Assembly (NCBI GenBank): GCA_027577595.1
Contig: JANBRJ010000097.1
Location: 1 to 60,188 of the forward strand
Direction of reading: 5' to 3'
Source of the DNA: Coemansia sp. RSA 487
Lineage: Eukaryota > Kickxellomycota > Kickxellomycetes > Kickxellales > Kickxellaceae
DNA length: 60,188 nt
Positions 4,401-60,188 of this stretch are shown one piece after another. A program made the position numbers and the translations under genes. Numbering within the stretch: the stretch's first letter is position 1; each line of letters begins with the position of its first letter. The notes beneath the pieces were generated by a model. The model was not told the origin of the DNA. It saw nothing but the letters and a program-made list of their open reading frames with translations, and ran no database searches.

Positions 4401-4452
4401 CAACGTCGAGCAGTGCGATACAAGAAGAACCACAGGCAACAGCGGGTTCTGA
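1414..4452 (+). CDS. Divergent OPT-family oligopeptide transporter-like membrane protein
   Basis: A 1012-residue multi-spanning membrane protein. Its overall plan matches the two OPT transporters downstream: an N-terminal tail, many hydrophobic segments, and a segment (LGTQLLGWSLGQ) that lines up with LTSQIMGYSFAG of the paralogues. GLVWGACVN and VVWGIVGPKSLF also correspond to OPT positions. The OPT family moves small peptides, glutathione or metal chelates with protons. Two OPT hallmarks are not recognisable: the NPGPFN motif is replaced by a different sequence near residue 190, and the KIPPR motif is missing. A roughly 100-residue polar insertion (about residues 280-390) separates the first hydrophobic block from the next. 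The frame opens at 1405 with TTG; the first ATG is 1414. Substrate and activity are unknown. Confidence 0.75.
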   Translation: MYRLDDPPQLPSIAHDMNIFSAFDDDKPLSHAASWHSSIVEIYDTGEKSICSSSPPPLPASNDTIVEPGYAECLPCSSAAEDFAPSWKAWMCALMFTTMFAFISPVFLFRAYTMPVTPLLIPVFLYLLCQLSNGQQMVSTRNTSLSKGTELISEHSNVYCKWYLHSMRRFKAFLRACLYWRPDIGSFSRQEVAWITSMVAAGGSFAPAYQWIATIDSDYGHLLSHWQQLAVVLGTQLLGWSLGQMLNRVFVGRSNKAPWPDTLPLSFLIQTLFPTPKRCYSQQQRQQPDNHCRLTENADVVDSDITRTNTQLFDKRNDEKMDRCSPIFRPKHSLPSNALAGSDSQKNYEPKDRLSCHSAPDNDSAHNSNDMQAVTITRKRTLALLTSGTFAYHIILSYIVPIFKSFCLLCFANPSSRILGSLGSGWNGTGILSVTFDWAAITSLQPFVTPFWAQIHYLLGAVLMLYILTPVGWRLDWWESSSLPIVSTNVFDITGSVYNITVVDQLGANYRQGPQRVYDPYSPVRLTVNSALAYIVSVAATAAVIMHLALWHSQWSLQAVTNMAQSLVRLWDPRPLFRTSSSAREDERCSRKRAVSDLAKRTGGAVIGLSKGRTHDQTPLASWNIKYVGSRVGRMLIFTASLGIAVVSSQLGITTLPGWQALLAAVWAMLMCIPLGFVEAMTGFTLPMDLLPHIFAGWMDGPGHPIENGYFHLWATVPVRVALGWSGVRGFQLVYSSCFAESRPRCTQQQKRDTKQPTPQLPWMKRGLLIGLVWGACVNHISYTAFSNSLEQTQIILPPSPADKAESSAADMTPTALGWHEEGEFGRLPAALSSELVVWGIVGPKSLFSANSPYRMLFLYGALVGVFAPLAQFTVHRLLVRLAKSDAAGRRSTACRRMAGQLAYVAKSIEIPLVLTGMVAVPTIPANFIISGLVVAVVAHIWCKRRSTTLVDRSLYNAAMDTGARLAVAVLFAVGQILATQQKALTFASWWGNRVGNVEQCDTRRTTGNSGF

Positions 4453-8302: not shown

Positions 8303-10651
8303 TTATATATCCATCATTTCCTTGTAATTGGCTTTGCCGTATGCCGCCAGTGGGCAATGGTACACGTTTAGACCCCACCATTGCGGAAGCTCCACCTTTA
8401 GGAAGATATAGTATACAATGATGCCCGAGATTGCCAGCCCACAGTCAAGCCCGGCAGAAAGTGCAAACGCATACCTCTGCCACGCGCGGTTAAAGTACTT
8501 GTGCCACAGGTAGTTGAAGAAAAAGCACCCAATAAACCAGTTCGTGTACACATGCGACGGGGCAGGCGGCATGTATCCGATTGCGATGAATAAAAGCGGC
8601 GTATGGATGTGCTTGGCCCAGCTGTTCGGGAACCGTTTTGATAGATACCAAAAGGGAAACGGAAGAAGAACACCGAGAATAAACAAGTACATGACTGGGT
8701 GGTAGGGGCTTCCAGGCCCAAACATGCGGCCAGGTCCAACCAGACCCCAAATAACCGACGCTGAGAAGAAGGTGTTGGCCTGCAGGCACGTAAATGGCAT
8801 TCCCTCTTTGGTACACATGTGATCCACAGTAGCCATCAGCCAAAAGGCAACGCCAAGCTGCACAAAGGAGCAGATGATGGTTCCGACTAGCTGTGCGATG
8901 AACAGGTGTCGTGGCGGAAGCTTCATATAGTGGCCAAGCTTCTGGTCAGAGACAAGAACCAATGCCTGCGCCATGGTGATGTAGCCGTAGACCTTGAAGG
9001 TGACATTGGCGATAGGATCTTCAGGCCGGCCATACCCAATGATAAACTCGGTGATGACATTGAGACCCGGCTGCTGGTTCGACAGCGCCTGCACGATTCC
9101 AATCGGGATGGTAAAAATAAATGGAATAAACGTTGCAAGGATAACCCAGTACCACGGCAACATGTCCCAAACCTCACAGACCACGATGGAAACCGCAAAT
9201 GTAATGGCAAAGGTAACCGCATACCACCACAATGGAACCTCCTTATACCTGTGCATGAGCCTCATATGGATATCATCATCCATCTGCCGAGCCTGGCGGA
9301 CACGCTGGACAATGTCCTTGCCATATGTTAGGGCAATGTATACCAGAAGGTTGGTGATTGCCGCAAAGCTGAGTCCATATGTCATTGCGTACGTGAATGT
9401 CATGCGTAGGGGTCCGTAGCTGGCATACTTTGCTTCGTCAAGCATGTTGTTGGCAGTCATCACCTGGTCGATTTCAAACTCTGTGCCGTTGGTCTGATAG
9501 AGAGTTGCGGTGTACATCGGCATAAGCTGCGTGTTCCACGTATTCCTGTAGTACCCTATCGGGGTTGCGACCCACATCACCAGCACAAACCCGGCAAATA
9601 CATTGCAGGCGTATATCCAAGGAATAGCAATAGGCGATTGTGTGTAGGAAGACGAGATGTATGACCAATCGAGCGTAAAGTTGAGCATGCCAACGCCGTT
9701 AAAAGCATCACCGAGCTGGTTCGCATAGATGTTGGCGGGTGCAATGAAGCAAAGAATTGCCAGGAAGCTCAAAGCAGGAAAGATGACACCTGGGATAAAG
9801 TACCAGAGGAAGCTGCCGGCAAAGCAGATCCAGAACACCCACGTACGAGTTAGCCGACTGCCAAAGTTTTGAATCTCGTGGAAGGTGCGGAAAAGCGTGA
9901 CACTCACAAGTGTCGATGGCCAGATCATCGCTGCTGGGTAGACGAGGAAGCGACGCGAGAAGCCGGCAAAGCTATAGCCCATGATCTGCGAGGTCAGGAT
10001 AAAGAGAATCGACGGACCAAAGCCCATGTCCGTATGGTACCACATCTTCTTGATGGTCACGACGTCTATGCCATACGTGGTGCCAACGCTAGTGCCTGCG
10101 AAAATAGAAATAATGACGTGCTCTTTGATGTTGAATGGGCCGGGGTTGAGTGTCCACTCCCAGCCAAATGTGCGAAACTTTCTCTTGGGCAGAACCAACG
10201 CCATGATGTAGCCAAGAGGAAAGGAGAGCAGCTGCACGACATATCCGTTGAGGGTGATAGGGTTTTCACGGAACCAATAGTACTGGTTGACAAAGGCAAG
10301 GCCGACGGCGAATATGATGCCTAGCACCCATGAGCGGAACGTAAGGCAGGGCATGTTTGGGTCATCCTTGTTGGACACAGCCATGCGTACCATCTCGATT
10401 GGTGAGTCCTCGACATCCAGATCCTTTTCAACGCCACCGAGCATCTTTTCGTCGGCATACCCAGCATCGCTGTAGCCTCTCTCGATGTCGCCAGCATGCA
10501 TGTCATTAAAAGCAGGCTGAGCGCTATTATTGTTTGGTTCAACATATAAATCTTGCTGGTTCTTTGTTCCGCGAGAAAAAAGAGCTGCGACGGGCGCAAA
10601 AACACCAGCGGCTTTGCGGCCGACAGACGATGGCTGATAATTCTCAGACAT
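8303..10651 (-). CDS. OPT-family small oligopeptide transporter (copy 1)
   Basis: A 782-residue proton-coupled peptide transporter of the ISP4/OPT type at the cell surface or vacuole. The hallmark NPGPFN followed by IKEHVIISI is present near residue 165, and the KIPPR-type motif (as KLPPRHLF) near residue 570. About 14-16 hydrophobic segments follow a roughly 95-residue hydrophilic N-terminus. The open frame reaches 10681, but that codon is TTG; ATG at 10651 (MSENYQPSS) is the first true start. It is followed downstream on the same strand by a close paralogue (12536-14797, its upstream neighbour in transcription order), and the two share long stretches of identical DNA. The substrate (di-, tetra- or pentapeptides, glutathione) cannot be told from sequence. 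Confidence 0.93.
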   Translation of the reverse strand: MSENYQPSSVGRKAAGVFAPVAALFSRGTKNQQDLYVEPNNNSAQPAFNDMHAGDIERGYSDAGYADEKMLGGVEKDLDVEDSPIEMVRMAVSNKDDPNMPCLTFRSWVLGIIFAVGLAFVNQYYWFRENPITLNGYVVQLLSFPLGYIMALVLPKRKFRTFGWEWTLNPGPFNIKEHVIISIFAGTSVGTTYGIDVVTIKKMWYHTDMGFGPSILFILTSQIMGYSFAGFSRRFLVYPAAMIWPSTLVSVTLFRTFHEIQNFGSRLTRTWVFWICFAGSFLWYFIPGVIFPALSFLAILCFIAPANIYANQLGDAFNGVGMLNFTLDWSYISSSYTQSPIAIPWIYACNVFAGFVLVMWVATPIGYYRNTWNTQLMPMYTATLYQTNGTEFEIDQVMTANNMLDEAKYASYGPLRMTFTYAMTYGLSFAAITNLLVYIALTYGKDIVQRVRQARQMDDDIHMRLMHRYKEVPLWWYAVTFAITFAVSIVVCEVWDMLPWYWVILATFIPFIFTIPIGIVQALSNQQPGLNVITEFIIGYGRPEDPIANVTFKVYGYITMAQALVLVSDQKLGHYMKLPPRHLFIAQLVGTIICSFVQLGVAFWLMATVDHMCTKEGMPFTCLQANTFFSASVIWGLVGPGRMFGPGSPYHPVMYLFILGVLLPFPFWYLSKRFPNSWAKHIHTPLLFIAIGYMPPAPSHVYTNWFIGCFFFNYLWHKYFNRAWQRYAFALSAGLDCGLAISGIIVYYIFLKVELPQWWGLNVYHCPLAAYGKANYKEMMDI

Positions 10652-12535
10652 GCCAAAAGAATCCGAGTAAAAAAAGGGCAATCGATGATCTACAGAAAAT
10701 ATTTGGAAAAAAGTTGATTATTCATAGCAGAAAATATTTAGAAAAAAGGCATTTCACTTTTTGCATCCATGTGGCGTTTGCATATCAGCGATTACGGACG
10801 ACAAATTCCACGCTGATAAATAGGCATACCTTTACGTTTTTAAGTAGAGTCCATTAAACGAACTAAACATGTGCAAGAGAATGTGACTCGGGCGAATTGT
10901 TCAATATAGTCCCCGCCCCTCTTCCAGTGATCGGCTACTACTTTTGTAACCGAATAATTATATTACAAAGAACAATAGGATAGAATATCAATTAAAAATG
11001 CTGTAACAGAATATTATAGCTTAAAATATAGGCTGCAAGTTTAGGCGGCAAGTGAAGAAAAGCAAAGCAACAATAAGATATTGGGGAGGAATAGCGATTA
11101 CAATGGGAAGAGACGTGAGGGAAAAATAGGGGAGGGTTGTGGCTGAAGAAGCTCAATTTATACCTTACGAGGAACAATGGCCTTCGGAAGCATATGCTCG
11201 GCTTTTTGTTTTGTTTGCGCTGGCAGATTGTGCACCTCATGCTCGATAAATTTGTATCCACGGATCGGGGTCATCCTGGGAAAAACAATACTCCTACACC
11301 ATACATGTCTAATATATCATCTGATCCGCTATTTTGGTGTATAGTTTCCTTTAGTGTCCTTGATCCGACTCTCCGGCAGCTCATATGCCTCTGTTTTCCG
11401 ACATTTCCAAATTGGGTCATGCCTTTAGGTCGGATTACAGCAAATAAAATGACATCTAGCTCCAAGCATAAGCGGAATTTGGAAACGTGGCTAGCTGTTG
11501 TGACGCTCTTTTATGGCTTGATCAGCAACACGCAATATCCTTAGATCTACGATATTACGCAGTGTTGGAATGCATTTGGAATGCGGAATTGGGTGTCTTT
11601 GGGTGATGTTTCTTTTTCGCTGTAGATCACATACTAGTCGCACTGTTATAGGAGGTAGATTTTACTTTGTGCACATTTACTTTGGTGTTTTTTTTCAAGT
11701 CCTATATGCAAAAGGAAACATAACGATCCGTTCTCGTGTGTCACAAGTAAATCAATCCCGCTATAAAAATAAGAAGAGGAGAGGGAGGAAATAGTCACAA
11801 TCTCATGGGACGAAAAATTCCGCTTCCATTCGGTCTGTCAAAAATCGGCAAAGCTCAGTCTTCCCGAAATACAGTACATGTTGGTTGAAACCGCCATTTG
11901 GAATTTTTTTTTTTCGTTGTTGTGGCAATTACTTTGTTTTGCAATTTGCCCATATTTTTAACTTGCGGAGTGGCGAATACACTAGAGTACAAAAAAAGTT
12001 GGAAAAATAACTAACGTTATAGCCAAATCAATAGATCAAGCACTGTGTCCGCGTTATGGACGGGTGATGTATGTGTGATAGGGGAATGCCTGGTGTCTTG
12101 GGTACTAGCACCGTTTAGCGGATTTGTGAATTATAAATGATCAAGACGGCGGTCTATGGTGAATTTTTGCAATTTGCCTATTGGATAGCTTGGAATCAAG
12201 CCCGATCAAAATCTCAATTATGCGACTTGGTTTGAGATTATCATCCTTTTATTTTCCATGCTAATAATATCTTCATTGACAAATATGTTGTGGAACGGGT
12301 TATAATTCTGATGGAAGGGCTGCTTTTTTTTGAAAGAAAAAAGAGATTTGCAGGCCGATCCTATCATCTAACGGTCATCCACATAAAGTCTTAATACTAA
12401 ATGTCCGTGGGAATTCCGTTTTAGTGCATTGAGCATCCAGCATTTGACAAAAGAAAATATACCAATGGTTCAATATATATTTTATTGAAAGACAGAGTAC
12501 ACATTTACTCCAACACCAACAACAGCAACAAAAGG
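10652..12535. other. Long promoter region between the two tandem OPT genes
   Basis: A 1.9-kb spacer that should contain the promoter of OPT copy 1 and the 3' end of copy 2. A C-rich block CCCCGCCCCTC near 10911 resembles GC-box or stress-element sequence about 260 bp before the copy 1 start. A 36-codon protein-like window ends at 11249 but has no convincing exon borders. Otherwise the DNA is AT-rich and featureless. Confidence 0.45.
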
Positions 12536-14797
12536 TTAGGAGGAAGATGAAGAAGCACGTGCCTGCTGAATACCGCTTGCCGCCAAAGGGCAATGGTGAA
12601 TATTAGTACCCCACCAGTCAGGAATTGTCACTTTCATAAAGATAAAGTATGTGATAATTCCCGAGATGGCCAAACCACAATCAAGGCCGGCAGAAAGTGA
12701 AAACGCATAGCGGGTCCACTGCTTGTTGCGGTACTTGTGCCACAGATAGTTGAAGAAGAAGCACGCGATAAACCAGTTCGTGTACACATGCGACGGAGCG
12801 GGCGGCATGTATCCGCTGGCAATAAAGAAGAGCGGCGTGTGGATGTGCTTGACCCAGCTGTTGGGGAACTTTTTCGAGTAAAACCAGAAGGGAATGGGGA
12901 GCAGAAGACCAAGGATGAACAAGTAGAGTGCCACATGGTAGGGGCTGTCAGAGCCAAACATGCGGCCAGGTCCAACCAGACCCCAAATAACCGATGCTGA
13001 GAAGAAAGTGTTGGCTTGGATACACGTCCAAGGGTAGCCTTCCTCTGTGCAGATGTTGTCGATGGTGGACATCAGCCAGAAGGCAACGCCAAGCTGCACA
13101 AAGGAGCAGATGATGGTGCCGACGAGCTGCGCCATAAAAAGATGGCGCGGTGGAATCTTCATGTAGTGGCCAAGCTTTTGATCGGAGACAAGAACCAATG
13201 CCTGCGCCATGGTGATGTAGCCGTAGACCTTGAAGGTGACATTTGCGATAGGATCTCCAGCACGCCCGTAGCCGATAATGAACTCAGTGATAACGTTCAG
13301 ACCCGGCTGCTGGTTCGACAGCGCCTGCACAATGCCGATGGGAATTGTGAATATGAATGGAATAATGGTAGCAACAATCACCCAGTACCACGGCATGAGA
13401 TGGTAGACTTGGCAGGTGACGATCGACAAGACAAAGGTGATAAGGAAAGTGGCTGCGTACCACCACAGCGGCACTTCCCTGTACTTGCGCATGAGCTTCA
13501 TGTGAATATCCTCGTCCATAGTGCGGGCCTGGCGAACGCGCTGGACAATGTCCTTTCCGTAGTAGAGGGCGACGTAGGTGAGGAGGTTGAGAAGCCCAGC
13601 AAACCCAAGGCCGTATGTCATGGCAAAGGTGTATGTCATGCGCAAGGGCCCATAACTGTCGTAGCTGGCGGGATCAAGAGTCTTCTCGGGCGTCATGACC
13701 TGGTTGATGTCAAACACCGAGCCGTTTGTCTGGTAAAGCGTCGCCGTGTACATTGGCATGTTTTGCGTGCCAAAAGTGTTCTTGTAGTACCCAATCGGGG
13801 TTGCAATCCACATGATGATGACGAAGCCGGCAAACACGTTGCAGGCATAGACCCAAGGAATGGCGATTGGCGACAGCGTGTACGCAGACGAGATGTAGGA
13901 CCAGTCGAGCGTAAAATTGAGCATGCCCACTCCATTGAACGCATCGCCGAGCTGGTTCGCGTAGATGTTGTTTGGCGCGATGAAGCAGAGGATCGCCAGG
14001 AAGCTAAGGGTGGGGAAGATGACACCCGGGATAAAGTACCAAAGGAAGCTGCCGGCAAAGCACATCCAGAAAATCTGGGTGCGGGTGAACTTGCCACCGA
14101 GGTTCTGGAACTCGTGGAAGGTGCGGAAGAGAGCAACGCTGATGAGGTTGGTCGGCCAGATCATTGCTGCTGGATAGACGAGGAAGCGACGCGAGAAACC
14201 GGCGAAGCTATAGCCCATGATCTGCGAGGTCAGGATAAAGAGAATCGACGGACCAAAGCCCATGTCGGTCTTGTACCACATCCGCTTGATAGTCACCACA
14301 TCGATGCCGTAGGTTGTAGCGGCACTGGTGCCTGCAAAGATGGAGATGATGACGTGCTCTTTGATGTTGAATGGGCCGGGGTTGAGTGTCCACTCCCAGC
14401 CAAATGTGCGAAACTTTCTCTTGGGCAGAACCAACGCCATGATGTAGCCGAGAGGAAAGGAGAGTAGCTGCACGACGTAGCCGTTGAGGACAATGGAGTT
14501 TTCGCGGAACCAGTAGAATTGGTTGACAAAGGCAAGGCCGACGGCGAATATGATGCCTAGCACCCATGAGCGGAACGTAAGGCAGGGAAGATCTGGGTCG
14601 TCCTTATTTGAGACGGAGGCGCGGACCATTTCAAAGGGCGAATCCTCTTCTTCTTCGGCCTCGTCAGCATAGGCAGCTTTCTCGTGAGCATGCTTCTCCT
14701 CATCGTGCATGCCGTTGTAGCTGCCTTCGCGCTGGTCCGGATGAGACGCCTGGTGCTGCAGCTGGGGCGCACCAGGAGCGCTTTCGATATCAAGCAT
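12536..14797 (-). CDS. OPT-family small oligopeptide transporter (copy 2)
   Basis: A 753-residue paralogue of the 8303-10651 protein with the same hallmarks: NPGPFN followed by IKEHVIISI, ILTSQIMGYSFAG, and KIPPRHLF in canonical form. It starts at ATG 14797 (MLDIESAPG). The hydrophilic N-terminus is shorter and acidic (EEEEDSPFEM), and the C-terminus ends in a Ser run. By eye the two proteins agree at well over three quarters of positions in the membrane part and differ mainly at both ends. Proton-coupled peptide uptake is expected from the family. Together with the divergent member at 1414-4452 this makes three OPT-like genes within 15 kb. Identity is concentrated in tracts, including one of 101 bp without a difference (10113-10213 versus 14349-14449). 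Confidence 0.93.
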   Translation of the reverse strand: MLDIESAPGAPQLQHQASHPDQREGSYNGMHDEEKHAHEKAAYADEAEEEEDSPFEMVRASVSNKDDPDLPCLTFRSWVLGIIFAVGLAFVNQFYWFRENSIVLNGYVVQLLSFPLGYIMALVLPKRKFRTFGWEWTLNPGPFNIKEHVIISIFAGTSAATTYGIDVVTIKRMWYKTDMGFGPSILFILTSQIMGYSFAGFSRRFLVYPAAMIWPTNLISVALFRTFHEFQNLGGKFTRTQIFWMCFAGSFLWYFIPGVIFPTLSFLAILCFIAPNNIYANQLGDAFNGVGMLNFTLDWSYISSAYTLSPIAIPWVYACNVFAGFVIIMWIATPIGYYKNTFGTQNMPMYTATLYQTNGSVFDINQVMTPEKTLDPASYDSYGPLRMTYTFAMTYGLGFAGLLNLLTYVALYYGKDIVQRVRQARTMDEDIHMKLMRKYREVPLWWYAATFLITFVLSIVTCQVYHLMPWYWVIVATIIPFIFTIPIGIVQALSNQQPGLNVITEFIIGYGRAGDPIANVTFKVYGYITMAQALVLVSDQKLGHYMKIPPRHLFMAQLVGTIICSFVQLGVAFWLMSTIDNICTEEGYPWTCIQANTFFSASVIWGLVGPGRMFGSDSPYHVALYLFILGLLLPIPFWFYSKKFPNSWVKHIHTPLFFIASGYMPPAPSHVYTNWFIACFFFNYLWHKYRNKQWTRYAFSLSAGLDCGLAISGIITYFIFMKVTIPDWWGTNIHHCPLAASGIQQARASSSSS

Positions 14798-17552
14798 GGT
14801 TTATAGCCCTCTCGTTTTTTATTTGTGCGTAGAGGCTAATAAAAATGTAAGGGTATTAGAAATAAAAAGAGAAAAAGTAACAAGGGTAGCAATGTATGCT
14901 AACACAAATACATACGACAAACAAAGAAACAAGCGCAATGGATATATAGAAAAGGGCAATATGAATGACTAGCGTGTTTGGATTCCACAACGCGGTGTCA
15001 TATAAAAGTATAATACCAGATAAGCAAGGAATAATAGAATGGCTTTGTTGAATAAACTACAGTTAAAGAAGCTGAAAGAGATGGATAGGAGCGCCGAGTG
15101 AAGGTACCAGCCAGAGAGGGAGGAATGTGGAGATGGACAATGGCGACAAGCCCCCCTTTTTAAGTGAAATAGCGACGAGATAAAGCAGCTGGAAGGGCAG
15201 AGAGATAGAGAGATAGAGAGATAGAGAGGCGTTCTGCGACAAATGCTGTCCAAGGGATTTCCCAGAAAGCGCAAAGAGGGCCGACATTGTTGTTGTCAAA
15301 CGAATCAATGCATGGTCGGATGGAGCAATTGTCTGCGTGTGAAAAAGGAAAAGAAATAGCTCAAGCCTGCGCTAGCATTGGAAGCACCCATGGTCATCCC
15401 GGTTGTGGCGAGAAGGGGAAAGAATGGCAGCGGCAAATAAATCCACATCTATTCATTCGGGTGCAGACAATCTTGAGATGGATGGGTGGATAGATGGATA
15501 AAGGAGAAATGCGCCTTTCTCCTACTTTTTGTCCGATAGCTGCATGTGTTATTTTTGCACAAAATGTCGCATATGGTTGGAGGTAAACAAAAAAGTGGAC
15601 ACTCTGGCGGTGCCTTTTTTGGAATTGTTGCTGAATCTCATCCGCACATCCAATTACAAAGGAAAATGTAAAACTTTTGCATAGCGATAGCTAAAGTCTA
15701 GGAATATATTTTTCTCACATTCATCCCGAAAACCTGTTTAAAGCATTTGAAGGACGGTTTCCGTGCGGACGGGAGACAGCATTGCAGACAAAATAAATAC
15801 ATCTATTACCACGATTTCAGCGAATTACAGCCGGTGGACAGCACGACAAGGCAAAGAATAAATAAATAAGCAAGTGGATTGTCAACACGGCGCGTTGCGA
15901 GTCCCCATGTCTCAGAGTGCTCCTCTTGCCATATCTAGAAGGGTAGGAAAACAAAGTAGCACAACTATCTTTGAAATTTCAGTGGTTTGGTGTGGTTGAT
16001 GCATGATCGTCAAACGCGCATTTTGCGCTGGTTCCTTTTTTCTTAGATAACCCGATGGAAGTGTGCAAACGAAGCTCTTTCCATATCGAATTGCGGCCTG
16101 CATCGCCAAGAAAAATGGCGAATGACTGTGGGAAACAACGGCCTCCTCCGAAATGTACTTGGTTTTTTTCCAGAAATAGCGTATGTCCCATGCTATCTTT
16201 TTGCAAGAAGAATAGAAAAATAAGTTTACAAAAGGCTTGCGATCGATCACATTCACCCAAACACAACCACATTTGGGGATTGCCCAGAATTTGGGCACAG
16301 CAATCACAGCCTATAGATTATGATCGGCAAGCATTTGATTACGTCCAGCCGGATCGGCCAATAGACGAAAAAGCAGCACAGCATATAATCGGAATGAGCA
16401 TATGCTCTCCAATTTCCTCTTTAGGCCATTGCGGGTTTAAAAAGGTCAAGAGAGCCAAATAATAAATAGAAAAGGCTCAACACAAAACAAAACGCACGTT
16501 GGACAAAAAGGTGAGATCTTTTTCGTCTTTGAGATGTGGCAAAGGGCGAGAAAAAAAAGCAGAAGAAATCGGCGCAATTCCAGCCGTTCCTCTCCGTGGG
16601 CTATCATCCTCACATGCAAATACAAAAAACCAAAGGTTGCAGTTAGGCGCATGCACCGATAATCACTTCTTTACTTGGTAACCAGGACAAAGAAATACAG
16701 CTATACGGTGTGCTTTGCCACAATTGTCAAACAAAGGCTGCTATAGACCTGACAGGGTGGCATGGGGTTGGCTAATGCAAGACTGGACATCCAAAAGATT
16801 GAAAGTGTTTGTCCTTTTTTTTCTCTTCCTCACAAATCTCGGACTACCATGTGATATTAGCTTTGCGAAGCTAATGCTACATGCACTAGCTCTTGCATTT
16901 GCTGTTATTTGGAGGAGGGCTTGATTGGGTTATCTTCTACCCTCTCTTCCCAAACGAGACGCACATTTTGAACCATCACAAAGAATCGCCGCGATAAGCT
17001 GTGCATACGTTGGTGCCAATACGAGCGAGTTCTGGCATTGCATGCTGTTCTGGAGGCAGCAAAGTTGTCTTGACAGCATCGATGGCAGCAGCATGCCTAC
17101 TTTAAGCATATAACGAATGTGCCTTTCCACCTCTGTGGGTCACAAGGCAAGTGCTGCCTGGCGTGGCACTTGTTTCTGCAGATGAATTGAACACTGGCAT
17201 TACAATATAAATGTGCATCGGAATTGCCATATAGAGAAAAGGGCTTGAAGTGGAGAATAGATGCTTCCAAATATTCGATCTGGAGCAACCATGGTAAACA
17301 AAATGAGCCTGGGAAAAAGGGCAACAGTGGCGGTTAATTCGAAATCCTGTTTTCTTGATTTTCAATCAGAATATCTGCGCTAGTTCTAGAATCTAGAATT
17401 TAGATGTCTACCGTATTTATTTTGCATAGACTAGCAATCAGACACGACGTATTTACGTTAGCACAGACTTTTCATCCAGTGGTGGTTTAGTAACGAATAA
17501 TGTAATTAAAAGAATATCATATAAAAGAAAAACGAAAAACAACTATGTAATA
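14798..17552. other. Long intergenic region
   Basis: This 2.75-kb stretch lies between the OPT copy 2 start (-) and the antiporter stop (-), so most of it is OPT upstream DNA. It contains an AGAGATAG microsatellite (about 15200-15228) and scattered short open frames. One stretch near 16310-16410 reads like protein for some 30 codons but lacks a start or domain. I see no RNA gene or mobile element. Confidence 0.45.
15200..15228. repeat. AGAGATAG microsatellite
   Basis: Three to four tandem copies of an 8-base AGAGATAG unit lie upstream of OPT copy 2. Confidence 0.75.
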
Positions 17553-32336: not shown

Positions 32337-33550
32337 ATGGCATTTCAGCTAATAGCGCGGCATGTGGACGAGACACTGGAGCAGGAGAACTGGTTTACGC
32401 TCAACAAGCGTATAAAAGCGGACCTCATAGTTTTGTGCCAAGAACGAGGTAAGCATAGAAGCGCCGCCCCTCTCCCTTTTTTCATAGGTATTTGACGCAA
32501 ACAACACTAACAGCGAGAATGGCTCTAAACCAATGATATTTTCCCAACCTGATATCGATAGGTCTCTCGGCAGAGGGCTCAAAGTCGCAGCTGATACAGG
32601 AGCTAATGGATTGGAAGATTAACACAAAGCCTGTGCCTGTACCGTCGAGTCCACACTTGGAACAGGTAAACACGCGGGAAGCCAACCTGCTTTACAGTGC
32701 AGGAGCAAAGAACAGCAACGAGGCATCGGACTACTCGGACGAAATAGCTGTGGACAAGCTGGTTTTCGGGAGCAAAATAGGCTCTGGGGGCTTCAAGGAC
32801 TGCTACCGAGGCGAATACCAAGGAAACCCGGTGGCAATAGGCGAAGTAAGGATAGCAGACTTTTCGTCGAGTGACTTTGAAGAGATCCGGCACGAAATCA
32901 GCGTTTTGAAGCAGCTACGGCACGAAAACATTGTCAAGTTCATCGGCGTGTGCTCGAACAGGCGGAGGCTGTGCATTGTAACTGAGCTGTGCGAAAACGG
33001 CGACCTGTTTGACTTTATGAGAAAAGTTCCCAAGCCGCCGTTTGGCCAGCTAATGATGTTCATGCACGATATTGCACTGGGTGTATCGTATTTGCACACA
33101 CGGCGACCCAGTGTCATCCACCGCGATCTAAAGTCAATGAACGTGCTGATATCGTCTGACAACCGCGCAAAGATAAACGACTTTGGGTTGGCACGTATCC
33201 GCCCGCGCATGAACACGATGGTTCACACTGCTTGCGGGACGCCCAACTGGCAGGCACCCGAGTTCTGGGCATCGCGACCATCGTACACCGAAAAGGTCGA
33301 TGTTTATGCGTGTGGTTTGATCTTCTGGGAAATACTGCAGTGGGGCGAGGAACCGTATCCGTACCACGACATGACTGAACACCAGCTCTACTCGCAGGTG
33401 CGCGACCATGGGTACCGCCCACCGCTGACTCGCCTACAAAAATATCCAAAGGCATTGCTTGATCTCATCCAGCAGATGTGGGCTCAAGTTCCAGCGGACA
33501 GGCCTCCAATGACACAGGTTGTGGAGCGTCTTTTAGAGTATCTTTCATAA
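32337..33550 (+). CDS. SAP-domain protein kinase lacking the VAIK lysine
   Basis: Two exons (32337-32448 and 32562-33550) give 366 residues. Residues 25-56 form a SAP motif (LVCQERGLSAEGSKSQLI-type), a DNA- or nucleic-acid-binding helix pair that is completed only by splicing. The kinase domain (about 103-365) resembles TKL/tyrosine-kinase-like enzymes: HRDLKSMN (Asp 226, Asn 231), NDFGLAR (Asp 244), CGTPNWQAPE and DVYACGLIFWE. The beta-3 VAIK lysine is replaced by Gly 131 (VAIGEV). A lysine instead sits in the glycine loop, GSGGFKDCYRG (Lys 116), the place used by WNK kinases. The alpha-C Glu is present (Glu 149). The kinase is therefore probably active by a WNK-like arrangement. Substrate unknown; the SAP motif suggests a nuclear role. 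Confidence 0.85.
32449..32561 (+). other. Intron of the SAP-kinase gene
   Basis: A 113-bp intron with donor GTAAGC and acceptor GATAG; CACTAAC at 32505-32511 or CTGAT nearer the acceptor could be the branch site. Splicing joins CGA G to GT CTC and restores a continuous SAP motif (CQERG joined to LSAEGSKS), which supports both borders. Confidence 0.85.
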
Positions 33551-49981: not shown

Positions 49982-52900
49982 CTACAGCACGCGCTTGGTT
50001 CTGCTCTCCGGTCTCTGCATTGCAGCGGTGGTCTTTTTCCGCTTGGACCATGTCTGTGTAGACCACCACTTTCTCCATCCGTCATGGTCGATAAGCGCCT
50101 GCATGCACCCCCATTCAATAATCTTTTTGCTGAGCCATTCCAAACCAACAGGCTTGGTCAAAAAGTCGTTACACCCAGCAGCAAGCGCTGCATGTCGGTC
50201 GCTCTCTAGAGAAGACGCAGTCAGTGCAACAATGATCACTGGAGACTTGATTGCCGTCGAGGGTAATGGCGAGGATGTGGACTGTTTCCCTGGCGACAGT
50301 TTGCCCAGATCCTTGGCCTTCTCTAGTGGTAGCTGCAGATTCCGTGGCATGCCTATGCGCCGCATGCTATTATTCCTCGATACAGATAGCGTAGTCGTCA
50401 GGTTCCTGGAATTGCCTGTTGCACCAATACTCTTTTCTCTTTTCAGCGTATCTGGATACATTGCAACCTGCCCTGTCGACTCGACTCCCAGTGGGTCCGG
50501 CGAAAGCAGTGCATCGCCCTGTTGAGCGCTCTTTTCTTGAGATACAGCCACTGCTAGGGCTTTAGCACCATCGCCACCGTATTGATCCAAGGTTGAGCAA
50601 GGGCTTCGCTTAAAGCCGACAAAAGACCGGTTCCGCCGCGCAGCCAGGGATGATTTTTGGTTCGACGACACACCAGCTGCAGTGTTGGCCGTGGGCACAG
50701 AGTTTGCAAGGCATTGCGTCTGAATATAATCCGAGTTCCTTAGAGAAGAAGACCGCTCGCGGGAATGCAGTGGTGTCCACCGGATAGTACGCTGGAAGGC
50801 ACCATCATGCCCAAGCCCTGCTGGCGGCGTACTCACAGATGTCATGGCCATTCGCGATTCAAGGGCCAATTTGCGTGTAAGCGGAGTTAACACGCTCATC
50901 GATGGAACGCTGTCAGCGGCCATACTTGCCATAGATCCGGTCGAGACCCAGACACCGACCTTCTTTTGCCGCTCCAGGCTGCGAATGTGCTTTGTTGCTG
51001 TTATGCCGTCCATGATCGGCATCTGGATATCCATAAAGACGATATGGTAAGGCCCTCGTCCAGAAACAGCCTCCCCATCTTCGCCCATCCGCGACTCCTC
51101 CGCTGCACGCGTCCACATGGAAATTGCCTCTTCACCATTCGAAGCAACGTCGTAGGAGACGTTGAGGTGCATCATAAAGCGCTCCATGATGTTGCGGTTG
51201 ATAATATTATCCTCAACGAGCAGAACACGAATCGGCGGTGGTCTAAATTTCTGTGCCAGAAGCATCAGCTCGCTTGTCAACGCCGTCGTCTGCTGGGTGC
51301 TTGAGCTGCCGCTCTGCCGCTTGTCCTTACCCCGTGGAATCTGTGCCGAGCCAGAGTGTTGTCTGTTCACACGCTTGCGAGTCTTATCACCAACCCCCTT
51401 GCCGCGTCCGCTTTGCGACGACACTATCGACGACGTATCAGGATTATCCCCCTCAGGCTTGCTGTCACTATCGGGGAGCTCTCCTGCAGCTTTCATCGCC
51501 TCAAGCTTTTGCGACTCTGCCAGCTTCTTGCTGGCGATTTGTAAACGAGCACGAAGCTTTGCCTTGCGCTCCTGCGCAGTTGTTGTTGGCTTTGGGGCTT
51601 GAGTCGACAATGCGTCGCTGGATGCTTGCTGCTGCCCCTCCTCCCCTTCCTTTTGTGGAGACGCCTTGCTCTTGCTGTTGTTGACATCAGCATCTGTCTG
51701 CGCTTTGTCGTTTTCCTTTGAAGAAGCCTCTTCCCCATTCGTTTCTGCTGGCACTTGAGACAAATCACTACTCTCAGAGAATGGCTCTGTCTCTATGGCA
51801 TTCGGATGGGCAGACGGAGGCATGGGAAGCGGCTTGTCCAGATTCAGCTGCTGCCTTTGGCGTTCAAAGTCGCCGGGCGTATCTGTAGCCCTTAAGACTG
51901 CCGCCACATCCGCTGCTGCCGAGTCCAGATTTTGTAGGGTTTGCATTGTAGTATTCCTGTGCATGTCCTTCAGTCTACGGTCTTTCCGAGCTGCACCGCC
52001 GCCAATCGATGGGATCGGGTCGCTACGGCTAGGTGGAGAAACGTCCCGCATTTCTGTGCCCCCATGAGATTCTAACCTTGTTGACACAGATCCAGTGGTT
52101 GACGGATCCTTTGCTGTAGGCTTTGATCCTTGCAGTTCGGGACTTTGGTCATGTATCCCAAGAATCTTGCCTCTAGCCATCTGCCTTGCACGGTTAAGAA
52201 TCTTGTCACGGAAACGGGAAGGCGTCCTCGTATGGCCACGCTCATACAAGTGCTCTGCGCTTTTTCGCGATAGGTCTAGCGAGGACTCACTACGCTTTGG
52301 AGGGAGCGCTGGTGATGTCGATGGTAAATCGTCGTACCCATAACCGGCATATATGCCAGCGTTGCTGTCGTGGGTTGCCGCGTCCAAAACCTGCTTTCCA
52401 AGCTCTACTGGTACCTTGTCGAGCGAGACTATCGAGACTGAATTCTCGGAAAAGGTGGACACTGTATCTGAGTTAGCGTTGCTGTATGTCGAAGATCTCT
52501 CAGAAGACTGCATAAGAGACGCTGGACTGGAGATTCTCCGGCTTTCTCTGCTATTTGTGGTTCTGCTACTGCTGCTGCTTGGCTTAAAGTGTTTGTTGGG
52601 CTTCAACGGAGCAGAGCTGTTGTCGCCCTCGTCCTTTGCGTGGCTAATAGCAGCATCTAGCTCGGCTGGGGGAACTGCGTGTTGGCCGGATCCTCCACGC
52701 ACGGACGAAGATGTAAACCGAAGCGATCTCGCCAAGGCTGGGTCGATTTCAATCAGCGGGCTTGGTGGAGTCTTTGCCGAGTTTGGAAACTCGGGCGAAG
52801 ACGACCGAGTGTCAGTTATGGCGCCCATTGCAAGGCTCGAGGGACGGTCGCTTCTCCACTCAAGACTGCTTTTAGAAATTTCCACAGCGTCGTCCGACTG

Positions 52901-55900
52901 TTGATGCGTGTCAGGTTGGGATAAGTGGGTGTTTGGAGCCGTGATTATGTCAGAACCGAGACTCGGCTCTCTGGAAATTGGTATATGAGGCTGCTGCTGC
53001 TGCATAGTAGGCTGTACAGATACGCCAGGAATATAGTGCACTGCGTCACTGATTGTGTCCGAAACATAGGTGCTGGATGTAAGTATGGACGTAGTGGCCG
53101 CTGCAGAGACCAATGGCAACTGAGCTAAGCTGCTAAATGTGTTGGCTGTGGTGTTGCTTTCTGTGGTAGCCGGGAAAGCGATAACACCTTTGCTTTTGTC
53201 TGCACCGTCGTTATCTTCCATATTACCAAACGACAGATCGGAGGCCTTCGGCGATCCCGACACTGTGCGCAGGTTGCGATAAAAGCCCTCACTAGTTGTG
53301 CTATGCGGAGTCGACAGAGTAGAGCCTGCTTTCAATTCGTTTGTAGGGTCCGTTAGCGGGCCGGTAATATAGCTAGCACCAGCAGACATATCATGTCTAC
53401 GATGTCCCTGGTGGAAATTAGACAGTCCACTAACACCAAAGCTCTGGGTATGTTGTTGCTGCTGCTGCTGCTGCTGTTGTTGTTGTTGTCTTTTCGCGGT
53501 GAGACGTAACTGTAACTGTCGCATGTCCCATGCAAGCTGCAGACTATTCAAAAGCCTTCGCTCGCTTACAGGCTTGGGCACAATCTTGACTATAGGCGGA
53601 GGCAGCGGATGAGGAACCGCTAGCAACGCACGCAAGCAGCTGATATACATTTCCAGAGCTGAAACAGGAACAAACACAACCACACCGATCGTCGCCGTTT
53701 GTAACCCCTTTCGCCGTCTTACAGAAAGCGAGCTCCGACCTTCACTTCTGGGTGACCCCATATACCCTTCGCTAGCAAAGCCCATGCTACTGGCTGTATC
53801 GTTCGACGGATGGTGGCCACCTATGTTGTAAGAAGAGCCCCCGCGCATTGAGATTGAGCCTGAAGACGAAAAGGTCAGGGTGCCTCGCAATGTCTCAAAC
53901 TCGGTCTTCATCGCCTCGATGTCATCATCGATTATTACAAATGCAGGTGGCCGCTGTGCAACTGGGTGCCTTGACTGGCCGGGAGTTGAAGGTAACTGTG
54001 TCCCAAATCCAACCGCCAACCGCTCCACCTGGCAGCCCGCGAATGTGGTCAAATACCCATCCAAATACCGAATTAGCTTGGCATCATCCTCTTCGTCCAA
54101 GCGTAAAGCTGAATTTGCGACCGTTGCGTCTGCAAGCACAGGTTCATTTGTCGCGCCACTGTCCTTGCTTGCGGATACAAGATTTTGTCGCTGTGTCTCA
54201 GAACCAGGTGTACGAATAACAATGCGTGCGCCACGAAGCATAGTGCAAAACTCTGACATATTAGGCACAAAGTCTATCGGTGTCTCCAGCATTAGATGGC
54301 TGTTGATGTCGGCAGGGGGCATCTCTTTCAGCTGGCGCGCAAGCAACGATGGTGGGTTCGGGATCAACGAATCGTCAATCGACATTCGTATTATGATCCA
54401 GTCATCGGACTTTACCAAATCGCTTCTTTCAAGCCCGCTTAGTGCAGCTTTGGGTGCCATGCTGCCATCGGCGAGCTGACCGCCAACAACGTGTGTGGTC
54501 AAGGATTCTTGTTTCTCCGTAGCAGACCACCTGCTTTCGACATTGACACTGTCGGAATATATCGAATTGCACAGTTCGTACACCTCCTCTAGTTCAAAAG
54601 TGCACCAATCTTTCCTCACGCCAAAACCCGTTTGCGCTGCTTCGTCGCTCTCAGAGTCGCTTCCATTGGCAAACCTAACAGTGCTCCTGCTTCCAGAACC
54701 GGCCTCCGTGTGGTTCCTGCGGCAAATAACGTAGATAGAAAGCGAAGCATGCTGCTGACCAGCAGCGCTAGTATTGTGAGCAGCAAAATGAGGAGTCAGG
54801 CAGAGCACGTCGCCAGATTGAAGGTAGTGCTCGAGAAGAATGCAAATGCATTCAAGCAAGATGTGCTTTGTCACCTGCACGAATTCACTTTTAAGAAGCC
54901 ACTTGCCGTGCAAAAGCATGTCTTCAGAAGTGACGGTTTCAGGGAACGCAGCGTTGATGATTTGCTTAGCGCGGAACGGGGGCGCCGGAAGCGTAATAGT
55001 TAGCTCTATCCCGAGTTCGTCCGCTCGTGCCGCTGTCGCGTCGCAAATGGCCTGCAAGTAGTATAACACACCATGAGATTTCTGGAGGGGCTGCTGAATA
55101 GGGGCATTGTTATCGTTGGCAGCTATGCCCCCCTTGATGTCGCTAGGAGCATGCCACGAAGGGTGTTTTGTGGTATCCGGCTGGCCATTGTTGCCAAGGC
55201 CAAGATGCTGCCGAGTGATTGTGGTAAAGCTCTCAACGTGTTCCAAAAGAAAGAGCGTTGTATTGATTGTCGATATTGGAACCACAACGTGCTCATACCC
55301 GTTCTCTGGTTCATCAGGCAAGCAGCAGGACCTTCGCCCAGTTCTGCGCCTTCTATTGTCTCCAGCGGTGCGCAGCGTGTCTTTGCTATGGAAGCATGGT
55401 GCGCCAGCAACAGCCAATCGGACATGCGACTGCAGCAGCCTGCTGAATCTAGCACGCTCGGCACGCAAGCTAGCCAAGAGCTTGTTTGTCCTATCCTGCA
55501 CAACAGATGCAGAATTGTTGGCGGCATGGCCAGGAGCGTGCATTCCAAGCAATGCAAGGCTGGCAACAAAGCTGAGAAGCCGTATCCGGGTATCCAGGAG
55601 TGGCTTCTCGGTATTGGCTTCCTGCTCGTCTCTGTTTTCGGGCTCTGACAATGCACGGCGAGACTTTCTCTGCACAAGAAGCAGCATGATGTTTGCAGCA
55701 ACCAGAGCAAGAAGCTGGCGGCTCTCCACAGCGCGGGTGCTCTGGATGAGGTGCTGGAAGGAAAGCAAGGTCATTGCTAATAGACGCAGCTCCGAGCGAG
55801 TTGTCCCATTGGACAGTATGCCGTTTTGTAAAAGTCGCACGTATAATCGGCGCAACGTTCCCTGTATATCGAAGTTCGTATTGCTGCTGCTAGGAGCGGC

Positions 55901-55912
55901 ATTAGCTGACAT
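49982..55912 (-). CDS. SSK1: SSK1-type response regulator with degenerate N-terminal kinase-like region
   Basis: A 1976-residue protein. The C-terminus is a receiver domain: VLLVEDNIINRNIMERFM with the acidic pair, VFMDIQMPIMDG with phosphoacceptor Asp 1628, VALTASS, and FLTKPV with the Lys. SSK1 proteins take phosphate from a histidine kinase relay and control the stress MAP kinase cascade (HOG type). The receiver is interrupted between the Asp strand and the Thr strand by an unusually long Ser-rich insertion of about 230 residues. The N-terminal 700 residues hold two hydrophobic segments (about 68-80 and 108-123) and stretches resembling a worn histidine-kinase dimer and ATPase region (LRAERARFSRLLQSHVRL, ICDATAARADELGIELTI) without a clear phospho-His box. 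The middle is disordered with a poly-Gln tract. Single exon; ATG at 55912. Confidence 0.85.
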   Translation of the reverse strand: MSANAAPSSSNTNFDIQGTLRRLYVRLLQNGILSNGTTRSELRLLAMTLLSFQHLIQSTRAVESRQLLALVAANIMLLLVQRKSRRALSEPENRDEQEANTEKPLLDTRIRLLSFVASLALLGMHAPGHAANNSASVVQDRTNKLLASLRAERARFSRLLQSHVRLAVAGAPCFHSKDTLRTAGDNRRRRTGRRSCCLPDEPENGYEHVVVPISTINTTLFLLEHVESFTTITRQHLGLGNNGQPDTTKHPSWHAPSDIKGGIAANDNNAPIQQPLQKSHGVLYYLQAICDATAARADELGIELTITLPAPPFRAKQIINAAFPETVTSEDMLLHGKWLLKSEFVQVTKHILLECICILLEHYLQSGDVLCLTPHFAAHNTSAAGQQHASLSIYVICRRNHTEAGSGSRSTVRFANGSDSESDEAAQTGFGVRKDWCTFELEEVYELCNSIYSDSVNVESRWSATEKQESLTTHVVGGQLADGSMAPKAALSGLERSDLVKSDDWIIIRMSIDDSLIPNPPSLLARQLKEMPPADINSHLMLETPIDFVPNMSEFCTMLRGARIVIRTPGSETQRQNLVSASKDSGATNEPVLADATVANSALRLDEEDDAKLIRYLDGYLTTFAGCQVERLAVGFGTQLPSTPGQSRHPVAQRPPAFVIIDDDIEAMKTEFETLRGTLTFSSSGSISMRGGSSYNIGGHHPSNDTASSMGFASEGYMGSPRSEGRSSLSVRRRKGLQTATIGVVVFVPVSALEMYISCLRALLAVPHPLPPPIVKIVPKPVSERRLLNSLQLAWDMRQLQLRLTAKRQQQQQQQQQQQQHTQSFGVSGLSNFHQGHRRHDMSAGASYITGPLTDPTNELKAGSTLSTPHSTTSEGFYRNLRTVSGSPKASDLSFGNMEDNDGADKSKGVIAFPATTESNTTANTFSSLAQLPLVSAAATTSILTSSTYVSDTISDAVHYIPGVSVQPTMQQQQPHIPISREPSLGSDIITAPNTHLSQPDTHQQSDDAVEISKSSLEWRSDRPSSLAMGAITDTRSSSPEFPNSAKTPPSPLIEIDPALARSLRFTSSSVRGGSGQHAVPPAELDAAISHAKDEGDNSSAPLKPNKHFKPSSSSSRTTNSRESRRISSPASLMQSSERSSTYSNANSDTVSTFSENSVSIVSLDKVPVELGKQVLDAATHDSNAGIYAGYGYDDLPSTSPALPPKRSESSLDLSRKSAEHLYERGHTRTPSRFRDKILNRARQMARGKILGIHDQSPELQGSKPTAKDPSTTGSVSTRLESHGGTEMRDVSPPSRSDPIPSIGGGAARKDRRLKDMHRNTTMQTLQNLDSAAADVAAVLRATDTPGDFERQRQQLNLDKPLPMPPSAHPNAIETEPFSESSDLSQVPAETNGEEASSKENDKAQTDADVNNSKSKASPQKEGEEGQQQASSDALSTQAPKPTTTAQERKAKLRARLQIASKKLAESQKLEAMKAAGELPDSDSKPEGDNPDTSSIVSSQSGRGKGVGDKTRKRVNRQHSGSAQIPRGKDKRQSGSSSTQQTTALTSELMLLAQKFRPPPIRVLLVEDNIINRNIMERFMMHLNVSYDVASNGEEAISMWTRAAEESRMGEDGEAVSGRGPYHIVFMDIQMPIMDGITATKHIRSLERQKKVGVWVSTGSMASMAADSVPSMSVLTPLTRKLALESRMAMTSVSTPPAGLGHDGAFQRTIRWTPLHSRERSSSLRNSDYIQTQCLANSVPTANTAAGVSSNQKSSLAARRNRSFVGFKRSPCSTLDQYGGDGAKALAVAVSQEKSAQQGDALLSPDPLGVESTGQVAMYPDTLKREKSIGATGNSRNLTTTLSVSRNNSMRRIGMPRNLQLPLEKAKDLGKLSPGKQSTSSPLPSTAIKSPVIIVALTASSLESDRHAALAAGCNDFLTKPVGLEWLSKKIIEWGCMQALIDHDGWRKWWSTQTWSKRKKTTAAMQRPESRTKRVL
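53455..53492. repeat. Poly-Gln codon tract in the SSK1-type gene
   Basis: A run of TTG/CTG triplets on the plus strand, i.e. about 12 CAA/CAG Gln codons on the coding strand, in the disordered middle of the regulator. Likely length-variable. Confidence 0.8.
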
Positions 55913-57179
55913 GTACTGTGCCCCCTGGTCGCTTGTTTCCTTTAATTCTACGGCTACACGGCGAATGACGTTTGTTTTTCCAAAAAAAAAAGTGCGTTGC
56001 TTGCTGCAGATATCAAACCTCTCCCTTACCCGTAAGAAAAATGACTGCGAGTCGAATGACAGACAAAGGTAATGCTAAAATGTGTAAAGAAAAGAGGGCA
56101 AGCCAGGTGCATTAAAGGCAGGGGTAAAGTTAGACAGACATATGAGTGTGGCTAGTTATCGCACGGACGCGTGGCTAATAGATAGTCCAGTATCTATAGT
56201 AACTGTAGTGTACATACAAGTATCGGAGATATCAAGGATAGAGTAAAGCGCCCCCAACAAAGTGCTATGGTGGTGGTGGTGCTGGTGGTGCTAGTGCTGG
56301 TGGTGCTAGTGCTGGTGCTGGTGCTGGTGAGTAAGAGGATTGCGTAAAGACCGGTAAATTCAAAAAGTGTTTGCGTGAGAATGAAGTGATACAAACAAAA
56401 AAAGAAACAGAATCGATAGTAACAGAAAGTGGACAAAAGGCGGGAAAAGAAAAAGAAAAAGTGACGAGTATTCTTTTTGATGTGTTCTTTTTTGATGTAT
56501 TATTTGGATACACTGATAGAAAAAAGGGATCAAAGGCAAATCCTCTTATTCTTTGCCCTCATCCTATAAGAAAAGACGGGCACGGTTTCTGGCATCAAAA
56601 GTTGGAAGCAAACTCGGAACAGCATATTCATATTTATACATACAAGGATTTTGTAATTATTTCACCGAGTCCAAAAAATAGAAAAACAGAAAAATATTTT
56701 GGACAATTGGCATGTGCACGAGATTTTTACATTCACTTGGACGATTTTACTAATCGTTGACGAACAATAAAAGACATTTAGCAGCCATTACTGGTTGCAA
56801 AGCCGAAACCAAGCATGGTGATATATATGCAAAATTGTTATCAACACATGCGCTTGCTATATTCATCTGAAGTGCAAAGACTGTCAACAGTGACTTATGT
56901 GGTGTCACTGAAGCTAAATACAGTGAATCCACCGTCAATTCATTTGATAAAGCGCAGTCAGTCAATCACTTATAATGCATATATTGTGCATATATATGTT
57001 GGGATTATCAGTGTTTTATGTAGAAAAGAACCACGGGTACAAATACCACTGGGTAGAATGTTTGTGCTGGAATATAACTCAATCATCTGCAGCCAAAGAG
57101 TAACAACACTGACCCAGAAAAAAGCGCATGGTTGCAAGTTAAAGGGTAAGCATATATATAATCTGTTTGGGTCTTTTGT
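55913..57179. other. Intergenic region between the SSK1-type gene and the OCRL-type gene
   Basis: A 1.27-kb spacer containing the SSK1-type promoter and the OCRL-type 3' end. It includes a GGTGCT trinucleotide-type microsatellite (56265-56332) and A-rich runs. Open frames such as 56371-56760 have no domain and poor composition. Confidence 0.5.
56265..56332. repeat. GGT/GCT/AGT microsatellite
   Basis: Some 22 consecutive triplets of GGT, GCT or AGT about 350 bp upstream of the SSK1-type start codon. The mix of triplets looks like a compound, diverged repeat. Confidence 0.8.
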
Positions 57180-59876: not shown

Positions 59877-60188
59877 TGTCTATAAGAGAAAAAAAGGTAT
59901 TTTTAATTAAGAAAGAGCATACATTTGTAAAAATAAAAAGCCTTCCAGATAAAAAAACGAAAGGCGATGATGACGCCACCAGGTATGCAGAAGTGAGAAC
60001 CGAACCTTTCTCTTTTGCTTCTTCGTGAGCCAAATTATTTTACACAGATAACACTCAAGCTTTTATACATGTAGAAATATTGAAGAGATATATTTTTCTT
60101 TCGTGCATTACCAAAGCTCTAACTAGACAAAAATATAGAGGGCTCTGAGGGGGAAAGAAAGAAAAAGCAATATCAGAGAGAAGAACGC
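59877..60188. other. Upstream region of the OCRL-type gene to the right edge
   Basis: About 310 bp of A/T- and purine-rich DNA, expected to be the OCRL-type promoter. No start of another gene can be made out before the edge. Confidence 0.5.

What the first reader, a model, noticed from the sequence alone, without database searches (positions are those of the whole stretch)
32337..33550. SAP-kinase with a WNK-like relocation of the catalytic lysine
The beta-3 motif reads VAIGEV, with Gly 131 where almost all kinases have the ATP-anchoring Lys. In the glycine loop, GSGGFKDCYRG carries Lys 116 in the same slot as the WNK1 catalytic lysine (GRGSFKTVYKG). The rest of the catalytic machinery is intact: alpha-C Glu 149, HRD Asp 226, Asn 231, DFG Asp 244. 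The overall domain looks TKL/tyrosine-kinase-like rather than WNK-like, and it is fused to an N-terminal SAP nucleic-acid-binding motif. This would be a second use, convergent or shared, of the displaced-lysine design, perhaps with chloride or osmotic sensing as in WNKs. I have some recollection of VAIGE-type kinases in other early-diverging fungi, so the family may be large but uncharacterised.
Basis: partly seen in the sequence, partly recalled or inferred. Interest (0 to 1): 0.75.

Follow-up and report, generated by a model that had tools for sequence, protein, structure and literature searches.

The report
Kinase with relocated catalytic lysine
A probably fungal gene encodes a protein kinase of the RAF-like kind that lacks its usual ATP-holding lysine but carries one at the spot used by the enzymes WNK and POMK, so it may be an independent case of a catalytic residue that moved.

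Summary
Spliced, 32337-33550 (+) encodes 366 residues; K116, G131, E149, D226, N231 and D244 sit as stated. K116 aligns with WNK1 K233 and G131 with C250. The domain resembles TKL/TK kinases (CTR1, RAF, TNNI3K) more than WNK, though WNK sisterhood is not formally rejected. AlphaFold2 gives a confident kinase fold with strand beta-2 starting at K116. Best explanation: an active Ser/Thr kinase using K116 in place of the beta-3 lysine. Rival: a pseudokinase with a coincidental lysine. No close relative was found, as no fungal genomes were searchable. So conservation of K116, the decisive test, and lysine-phosphate distances remain untested. SAP passes Pfam's cutoff only narrowly.

The parts
32337..32448 (+). 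exon 1 (residues 1-37 and first base of codon 38)
32449..32561 (+). inferred intron, 113 nt, GTAAGC...ATAG, inside the SAP-like motif
   Evidence: needed to keep the frame open; no transcript
32562..33550 (+). exon 2 to stop codon
32400..32599 (+). SAP-like motif (residues 22-50, split by the intron)
   Evidence: Pfam PF02037, 24.4 bits against cutoff 23.9
32762..33532 (+). protein kinase domain (residues 105-361)
   Evidence: Pfam PF07714 4.2e-55; AF2 pLDDT 90.8 for residues 90-366
32780..32812 (+). glycine loop GSGGFKDCYRG (residues 111-121)
32795..32797 (+). codon AAG, K116, in the slot of WNK1 K233
32831..32848 (+). beta-3 motif VAIGEV (residues 128-133)
32840..32842 (+). codon GGC, G131, where the canonical beta-3 Lys would be (Cys250 in WNK1)
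32894..32896 (+). codon GAA of E149, alpha-C glutamate
33119..33142 (+). catalytic loop HRDLKSMN (D226, K228, N231), Ser/Thr-kinase type
33179..33187 (+). DFG (residues 244-246); F245 where WNK1 has Leu369

Best explanation
An active RAF/CTR1-like (TKL) Ser/Thr protein kinase of a fungus-like eukaryote in which the ATP-anchoring lysine has moved from beta-3 (now G131) to the start of beta-2 in the glycine loop (K116). K116 would reach the ATP phosphates and pair with alpha-C E149; G131 leaves room where the beta-3 lysine would lie; D226, K228, N231 and D244 carry out the usual chemistry. The weak N-terminal SAP-like motif would hold the kinase at chromatin or RNA. Shown: sequence, slot equivalence, group similarity, predicted fold. 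Inferred: activity, the role of K116, the role of SAP, the host group.
For: K116 aligns with WNK1 K233 and G131 with C250 both by MAFFT and by BLASTP. K116-to-G131 spacing is 15, equal to POMK K91-to-S106 (residue numbers in the passages); WNK1 K233-C250 is 17. [quoted passage not shown] this is compatible but weak, since beta-2 may start there in ordinary kinases too. The other catalytic residues are kept, whereas a decayed pseudokinase would often have lost some. The double state is rare: 1 of 71 control kinases. Published precedents show a lysine here can serve catalysis in WNK1 and POMK.
Against: One sequence only: no close relative was found, so conservation of K116 is untested. No ATP-bound model and no coordinates, so no distances. 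Lys occurs in this slot in 2 of 69 control kinases that keep the beta-3 Lys, so coincidence is possible. The loop valine kept by CTR1, WNK1 and EGFR is Cys118 here; that this position belongs to the C-spine is recalled.
Confidence: 0.65

Rival explanations
1. A pseudokinase: the beta-3 lysine was lost, K116 is a coincidence, and the domain acts as a scaffold or switch tethered by the N-terminal motif.
For: Loss of the VAIK lysine is one of the marks by which pseudokinases are defined (passage). Lys appears in the slot in 3 of 71 control kinases, 2 of which keep their beta-3 Lys. No conservation data.
Against: alpha-C Glu, HRD Asp, catalytic-loop Lys and Asn, and DFG Asp are all intact; the Lys lies in the slot known to substitute in WNK1 and POMK.
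Confidence: 0.25
2. A true WNK-family kinase that has diverged, with chloride or osmotic sensing.
For: Same lysine slot; VAIGEV beside WNK1 VAWCEL; 31% identity to WNK1 over 229 columns; a tree holding the query with WNK1 is not rejected (p-AU 0.239).
Against: CTR1 scores higher (143 against 107 bits). By sequence the best PDB hits are EGFR, CTR1, RAF, TNNI3K and tyrosine kinases, with no WNK among the 60 of 2652 rows shown; by fold CTR1, TNNI3K and tyrosine kinases lead, with no WNK among the 50 rows shown. The free tree puts the query with CTR1, RAF1 and two tyrosine kinases, support 80/91. DFG instead of WNK1's DLG, and L369F makes WNK1 chloride-insensitive.
Confidence: 0.05
3. Active without K116, through another basic residue or a divergent ATP pose.
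For: Active kinases with rearranged active sites exist (POMK, PRPK, haspin in passages).
Against: The lysines from residue 100 to the hinge are K103, K109, K116, K154 and K163, and of these only K116 is at a position with a precedent known to me.
Confidence: 0.05

Closest known systems
WNK kinases (WNK1-4)
   Same: Lys in the glycine loop/beta-2 slot, small residue at the beta-3 Lys position, alpha-C Glu and HRD Asp kept (WNK1).
   Different: Query is TKL-like; Gly instead of Cys at beta-3; DFG instead of DLG; spacing 15 instead of 17; Phe at the Leu369 position.
POMK / SgK196 (protein O-mannose kinase)
   Same: Lys at the start of beta-2, small residue (Ser in POMK) at beta-3, Lys-to-beta-3 spacing of 15.
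   Different: POMK lacks the alpha-C Glu and the canonical HRD/DFG Asp residues, is an ER glycan kinase, and has a transmembrane domain; the query keeps the canonical motifs. POMK's sequence was not aligned here.
TKL kinases CTR1, RAF1, TNNI3K
   Same: Closest Ser/Thr kinases by sequence: CTR1 33% identity, 143 bits; CTR1 and TNNI3K closest by fold; CTR1 shares HRDLKSxN and GTPxWxAPE.
   Different: CTR1 and RAF1 have Gly at the loop slot and Lys in beta-3 (TNNI3K letters not seen); not known to carry SAP motifs (recalled).

Membership tests
TKL kinases | highest similarity to TKL kinases by sequence and fold | tested here: met
   CTR1, RAF and TNNI3K among the best sequence hits and CTR1, TNNI3K among the best fold hits, mixed with tyrosine kinases; the grouping with CTR1 and RAF1 alone is weakly supported, 61/69
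WNK kinases | Lys in the glycine loop/beta-2, none in beta-3 | tested here: met
WNK kinases | sequence kinship with WNKs | tested here: inconclusive
   CTR1 beats WNK1; free tree separates them (80/91) but the AU test does not reject sisterhood (p 0.239); both have long end branches
WNK kinases | Leu at the DFG Phe position (WNK1 L369), part of the chloride site | tested here: not met
   F245; L369F is a chloride-insensitive WNK1 mutant (passage)
POMK | beta-2 Lys with a non-Lys residue at beta-3, spacing 15 | tested here: met
   K116/G131; POMK K91/S106 from the passage
POMK | canonical HRD/DFG Asp and alpha-C Glu displaced or absent | tested here: not met
   E149, D226, D244 all present
Active kinases with a migrated lysine | migrated Lys is required for activity | not testable with these tools
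   needs an assay
Active kinases with a migrated lysine | migrated Lys is conserved among relatives | tested here: inconclusive
   no close relative found in viral contigs or genome contigs; no genome held for the window and no fungal collection
SAP-domain proteins | Pfam SAP match above the curated cutoff | tested here: met
   24.4 against 23.9 bits, narrow; no SAP match in PDB by phmmer

The most novel reading that the evidence does not exclude
A TKL clade of early-diverging fungi moved the catalytic lysine to the glycine loop once and then radiated, giving a third independent natural case of lysine migration beside WNK and POMK, here with the rest of the active site canonical and with nuclear, chromatin-tethered members.
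Probability: 0.5. Interest if true: 0.7.

Novelty: new variant of a known kind. Interest (0 to 1): 0.5.

Why it matters
The beta-3 lysine is used both to define active kinases and to make kinase-dead mutants. A TKL kinase that moved it would mean that lists of fungal pseudokinases may contain active enzymes, would give a third natural replicate of this migration with all other motifs canonical, and would help separate lysine position from WNK-specific features such as the chloride site.

Tried and rejected
Chloride/osmotic sensor: rejected as the leading reading because of F245. 'Second use of the design': rejected, POMK is already published. Sequencing error turning VAIK into VAIG: unlikely, a Lys codon differs from GGC at three bases, and the loop change is separate.

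Relatives: protein query in viral contigs, 1 candidate stretch, 0 relatives; four-kinase alignment in viral contigs, 28 stretches, 3 distant kinases at 28-30% identity, used only as controls; fixed-gap loop-plus-VAI pattern in viral contigs, 0 hits; the same with a non-Lys codon in genome contigs, 16 loci, none a kinase: 15 read through the match show other proteins or broken frames, and L010 is cut right after the match, with no kinase-like sequence before it; best tblastn E 0.024. That pattern covers one spacing and one set of codons. NWQAPExW pattern in viral contigs, 1 locus, not a kinase (a terminase by my reading of the translation; tblastn E 0.002 over 31 columns around the pattern only). 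Phage records by tblastn: 32 records, identity 23-32%, not inspected for the lysine slot. The search inside the window found only the gene itself plus one weak hit at E 0.15. A pattern count over the 140 loci then held gave no match. The fold search in viral predicted structures gave kinases of giant viruses, retroviral oncogenes and others at 18-35% identity in the 50 rows shown; their lysine slots were not seen.

Phage kinase L024 (Lys in the slot, Asn at the aligned beta-3 column) was followed once: its only match in viral contigs was its own contig. It has Ser at the alpha-C Glu column, so it was not counted as the same design.

Literature: searches found no paper in the held open-access library describing fungal TKLs with a glycine-loop lysine. 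Of long result lists only the listed part was seen (20 of 305, 10 of 449, 12 of 81). Only listings and the passages named in the report were seen, and the pseudokinase survey of Kwon 2019 is not held, so prior description cannot be excluded.

Samples: the AF2 alignment used 57 viral-contig kinase segments (of 60 listed and 78 non-redundant; L032, L057 and L049 dropped as partial) plus the window domain. The tree used 6 of those segments, picked by hand, plus 6 PDB kinases and the query; the EGFR row is partial (227 residues), and the PAK1 row carries the crystal's Arg in place of the beta-3 Lys.

Full report
What is there. The window lies in a eukaryotic, probably fungal, genome (an inferred intron in this gene; neighbours include OPT transporters, GH47, eIF3d, TYW2, NF-YA and an OCRL-like phosphatase). 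'Fungal' is inference from gene content; the organism was not identified and no genome is held for it. The gene at 32337-33550 (+) has two exons and encodes 366 aa.

Domains. Residues 105-361 are a protein kinase domain (PF07714, 4.2e-55). Residues 22-50 match SAP just above the cutoff (24.4 against 23.9 bits); a sequence search of the PDB with the first 72 residues found nothing credible. The SAP fusion should be treated as likely but weak.

Which kinase group. Sequence search of the PDB puts EGFR (a record with two kinase copies, which inflates its score), CTR1, RAF, the Src-Abl ancestor and TNNI3K first. Pairwise BLASTP gives CTR1 143 bits, 33%, and WNK1 107 bits, 31%. Foldseek with the AF2 model ranks CTR1 first, then TNNI3K, Hck, FGFR2 and Fyn; no WNK is among the 50 rows listed (at least 2,000 matches passed, so WNKs may lie below). 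A 13-row tree places the query with CTR1, RAF1 and the two tyrosine kinases, 80/91, away from WNK1 and PAK1, but query, WNK1 and PAK1 have long end branches, and forcing query with WNK1 costs only 4.5 log units and is not rejected (p-AU 0.239). So TKL-like is best supported, not proved. The catalytic loop HRDLKSMN is of the Ser/Thr type (established knowledge of kinase motifs).

The lysine. K116 aligns with WNK1 K233 and G131 with WNK1 C250 in both alignments; the WNK1 residue numbers rest on K233 as named and on counting along the sequence. From published passages: WNK K233 lies on beta-2, in contrast to beta-3 in all other kinases (PMC9877542, passage). [quoted passage not shown] changing the corresponding Lys to Gly abolishes activity of human POMK, and moving the Lys back to beta-3 restores it (PMC5142810, passages; PMC10211241, passages). 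The query's K116-G131 spacing of 15 equals POMK's. In the AF2 model (pLDDT 90.8, pTM 0.90; alignment of the window domain and 57 kinases from viral contigs) beta-2 runs 116-123 and beta-3 126-133 (model 27-34 and 37-44). That fits a beta-2 lysine but is weak evidence, since the alignment consists of kinases that nearly all have the ordinary arrangement.

How unusual. Among 71 control kinases with letters at both columns (of 78 non-redundant segments; the other 7 had gaps), 3 have Lys in the slot, 2 lack the beta-3 Lys, 1 has both. That one, L024, has Ser at the alpha-C Glu column. A relocated-lysine pattern of the query's exact spacing gave 16 hits in genome contigs, none a kinase (one of them, L010, cut right after the match), and 0 hits in viral contigs, but those collections are bacterial, archaeal and viral.

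Mechanism. I favour an active Ser/Thr kinase in which K116 does the job of the beta-3 lysine and pairs with E149 (0.65). The alternative of a pseudokinase with a coincidental lysine keeps 0.25, mainly because only one sequence is available. Regulation by chloride through the WNK site is unlikely: WNK1 L369F is chloride-insensitive (PMC13397483, passage) and the query has Phe there (F245). By the alignments WNK1 F283 is kept, L299 is Ile and L371 is Leu; the membership of F283 and L299 in the chloride site is recalled, not from a call.

Prior knowledge. Fungal kinome work seen here reports TKL expansion in Laccaria, with no occurrence of 'lysine' or 'WNK' in its main text (PMC2838846, passages and counts), and a large kinase repertoire in Rhizophagus irregularis (PMC10234402, passages) without mention, in the passages seen, of a relocated lysine. 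The oomycete kinome paper already allows the lysine to be in subdomain II 'or in subdomain I' (PMC3019232, passage), so the possibility is known to annotators. A human active-kinase list exempts WNKs from the beta-3 salt-bridge rule (PMC12934671, passages). Searches gave no description of such a fungal family in what was listed from the held library, which omits most subscription papers.

Verdict. Observation confirmed; interpretation partly supported; a new variant of a known kind, conditional on conservation data that could not be obtained here.

Noticed in passing
L024:488-1579 (-), IMG/VR contig IMGVR_UViG_3300042991_001118, 116 kb: A kinase from a viral contig with GMGSEKLV (Lys in the WNK slot) and Asn at the aligned beta-3 Lys column, but Ser at the alpha-C Glu column; only its own contig was found in viral contigs.
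   Followed up: partly
L085:2843-3697 (+) and L077:7718-8575 (+): Kinases from viral contigs with Lys in the glycine-loop slot that also keep the beta-3 Lys: possibly what an intermediate state with both lysines looks like.
   Followed up: no
L018:1003-2196 (+): Kinase-like protein on a viral contig with HRDLKSLN and DWT where DFG would be.
   Followed up: no
window 49985-56074 (-): 2030-residue open frame with a response regulator receiver domain, possibly an SSK1-like osmotic-stress regulator (name recalled).
   Followed up: no
window 1351-4449 (+), 8306-10717 (-), 12539-14800 (-): Three open frames matching oligopeptide transporters (OPT) within 14 kb.
   Followed up: no
window 57183-59879 (-): OCRL-like inositol 5-phosphatase with ASH and RhoGAP domains.
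   Followed up: no
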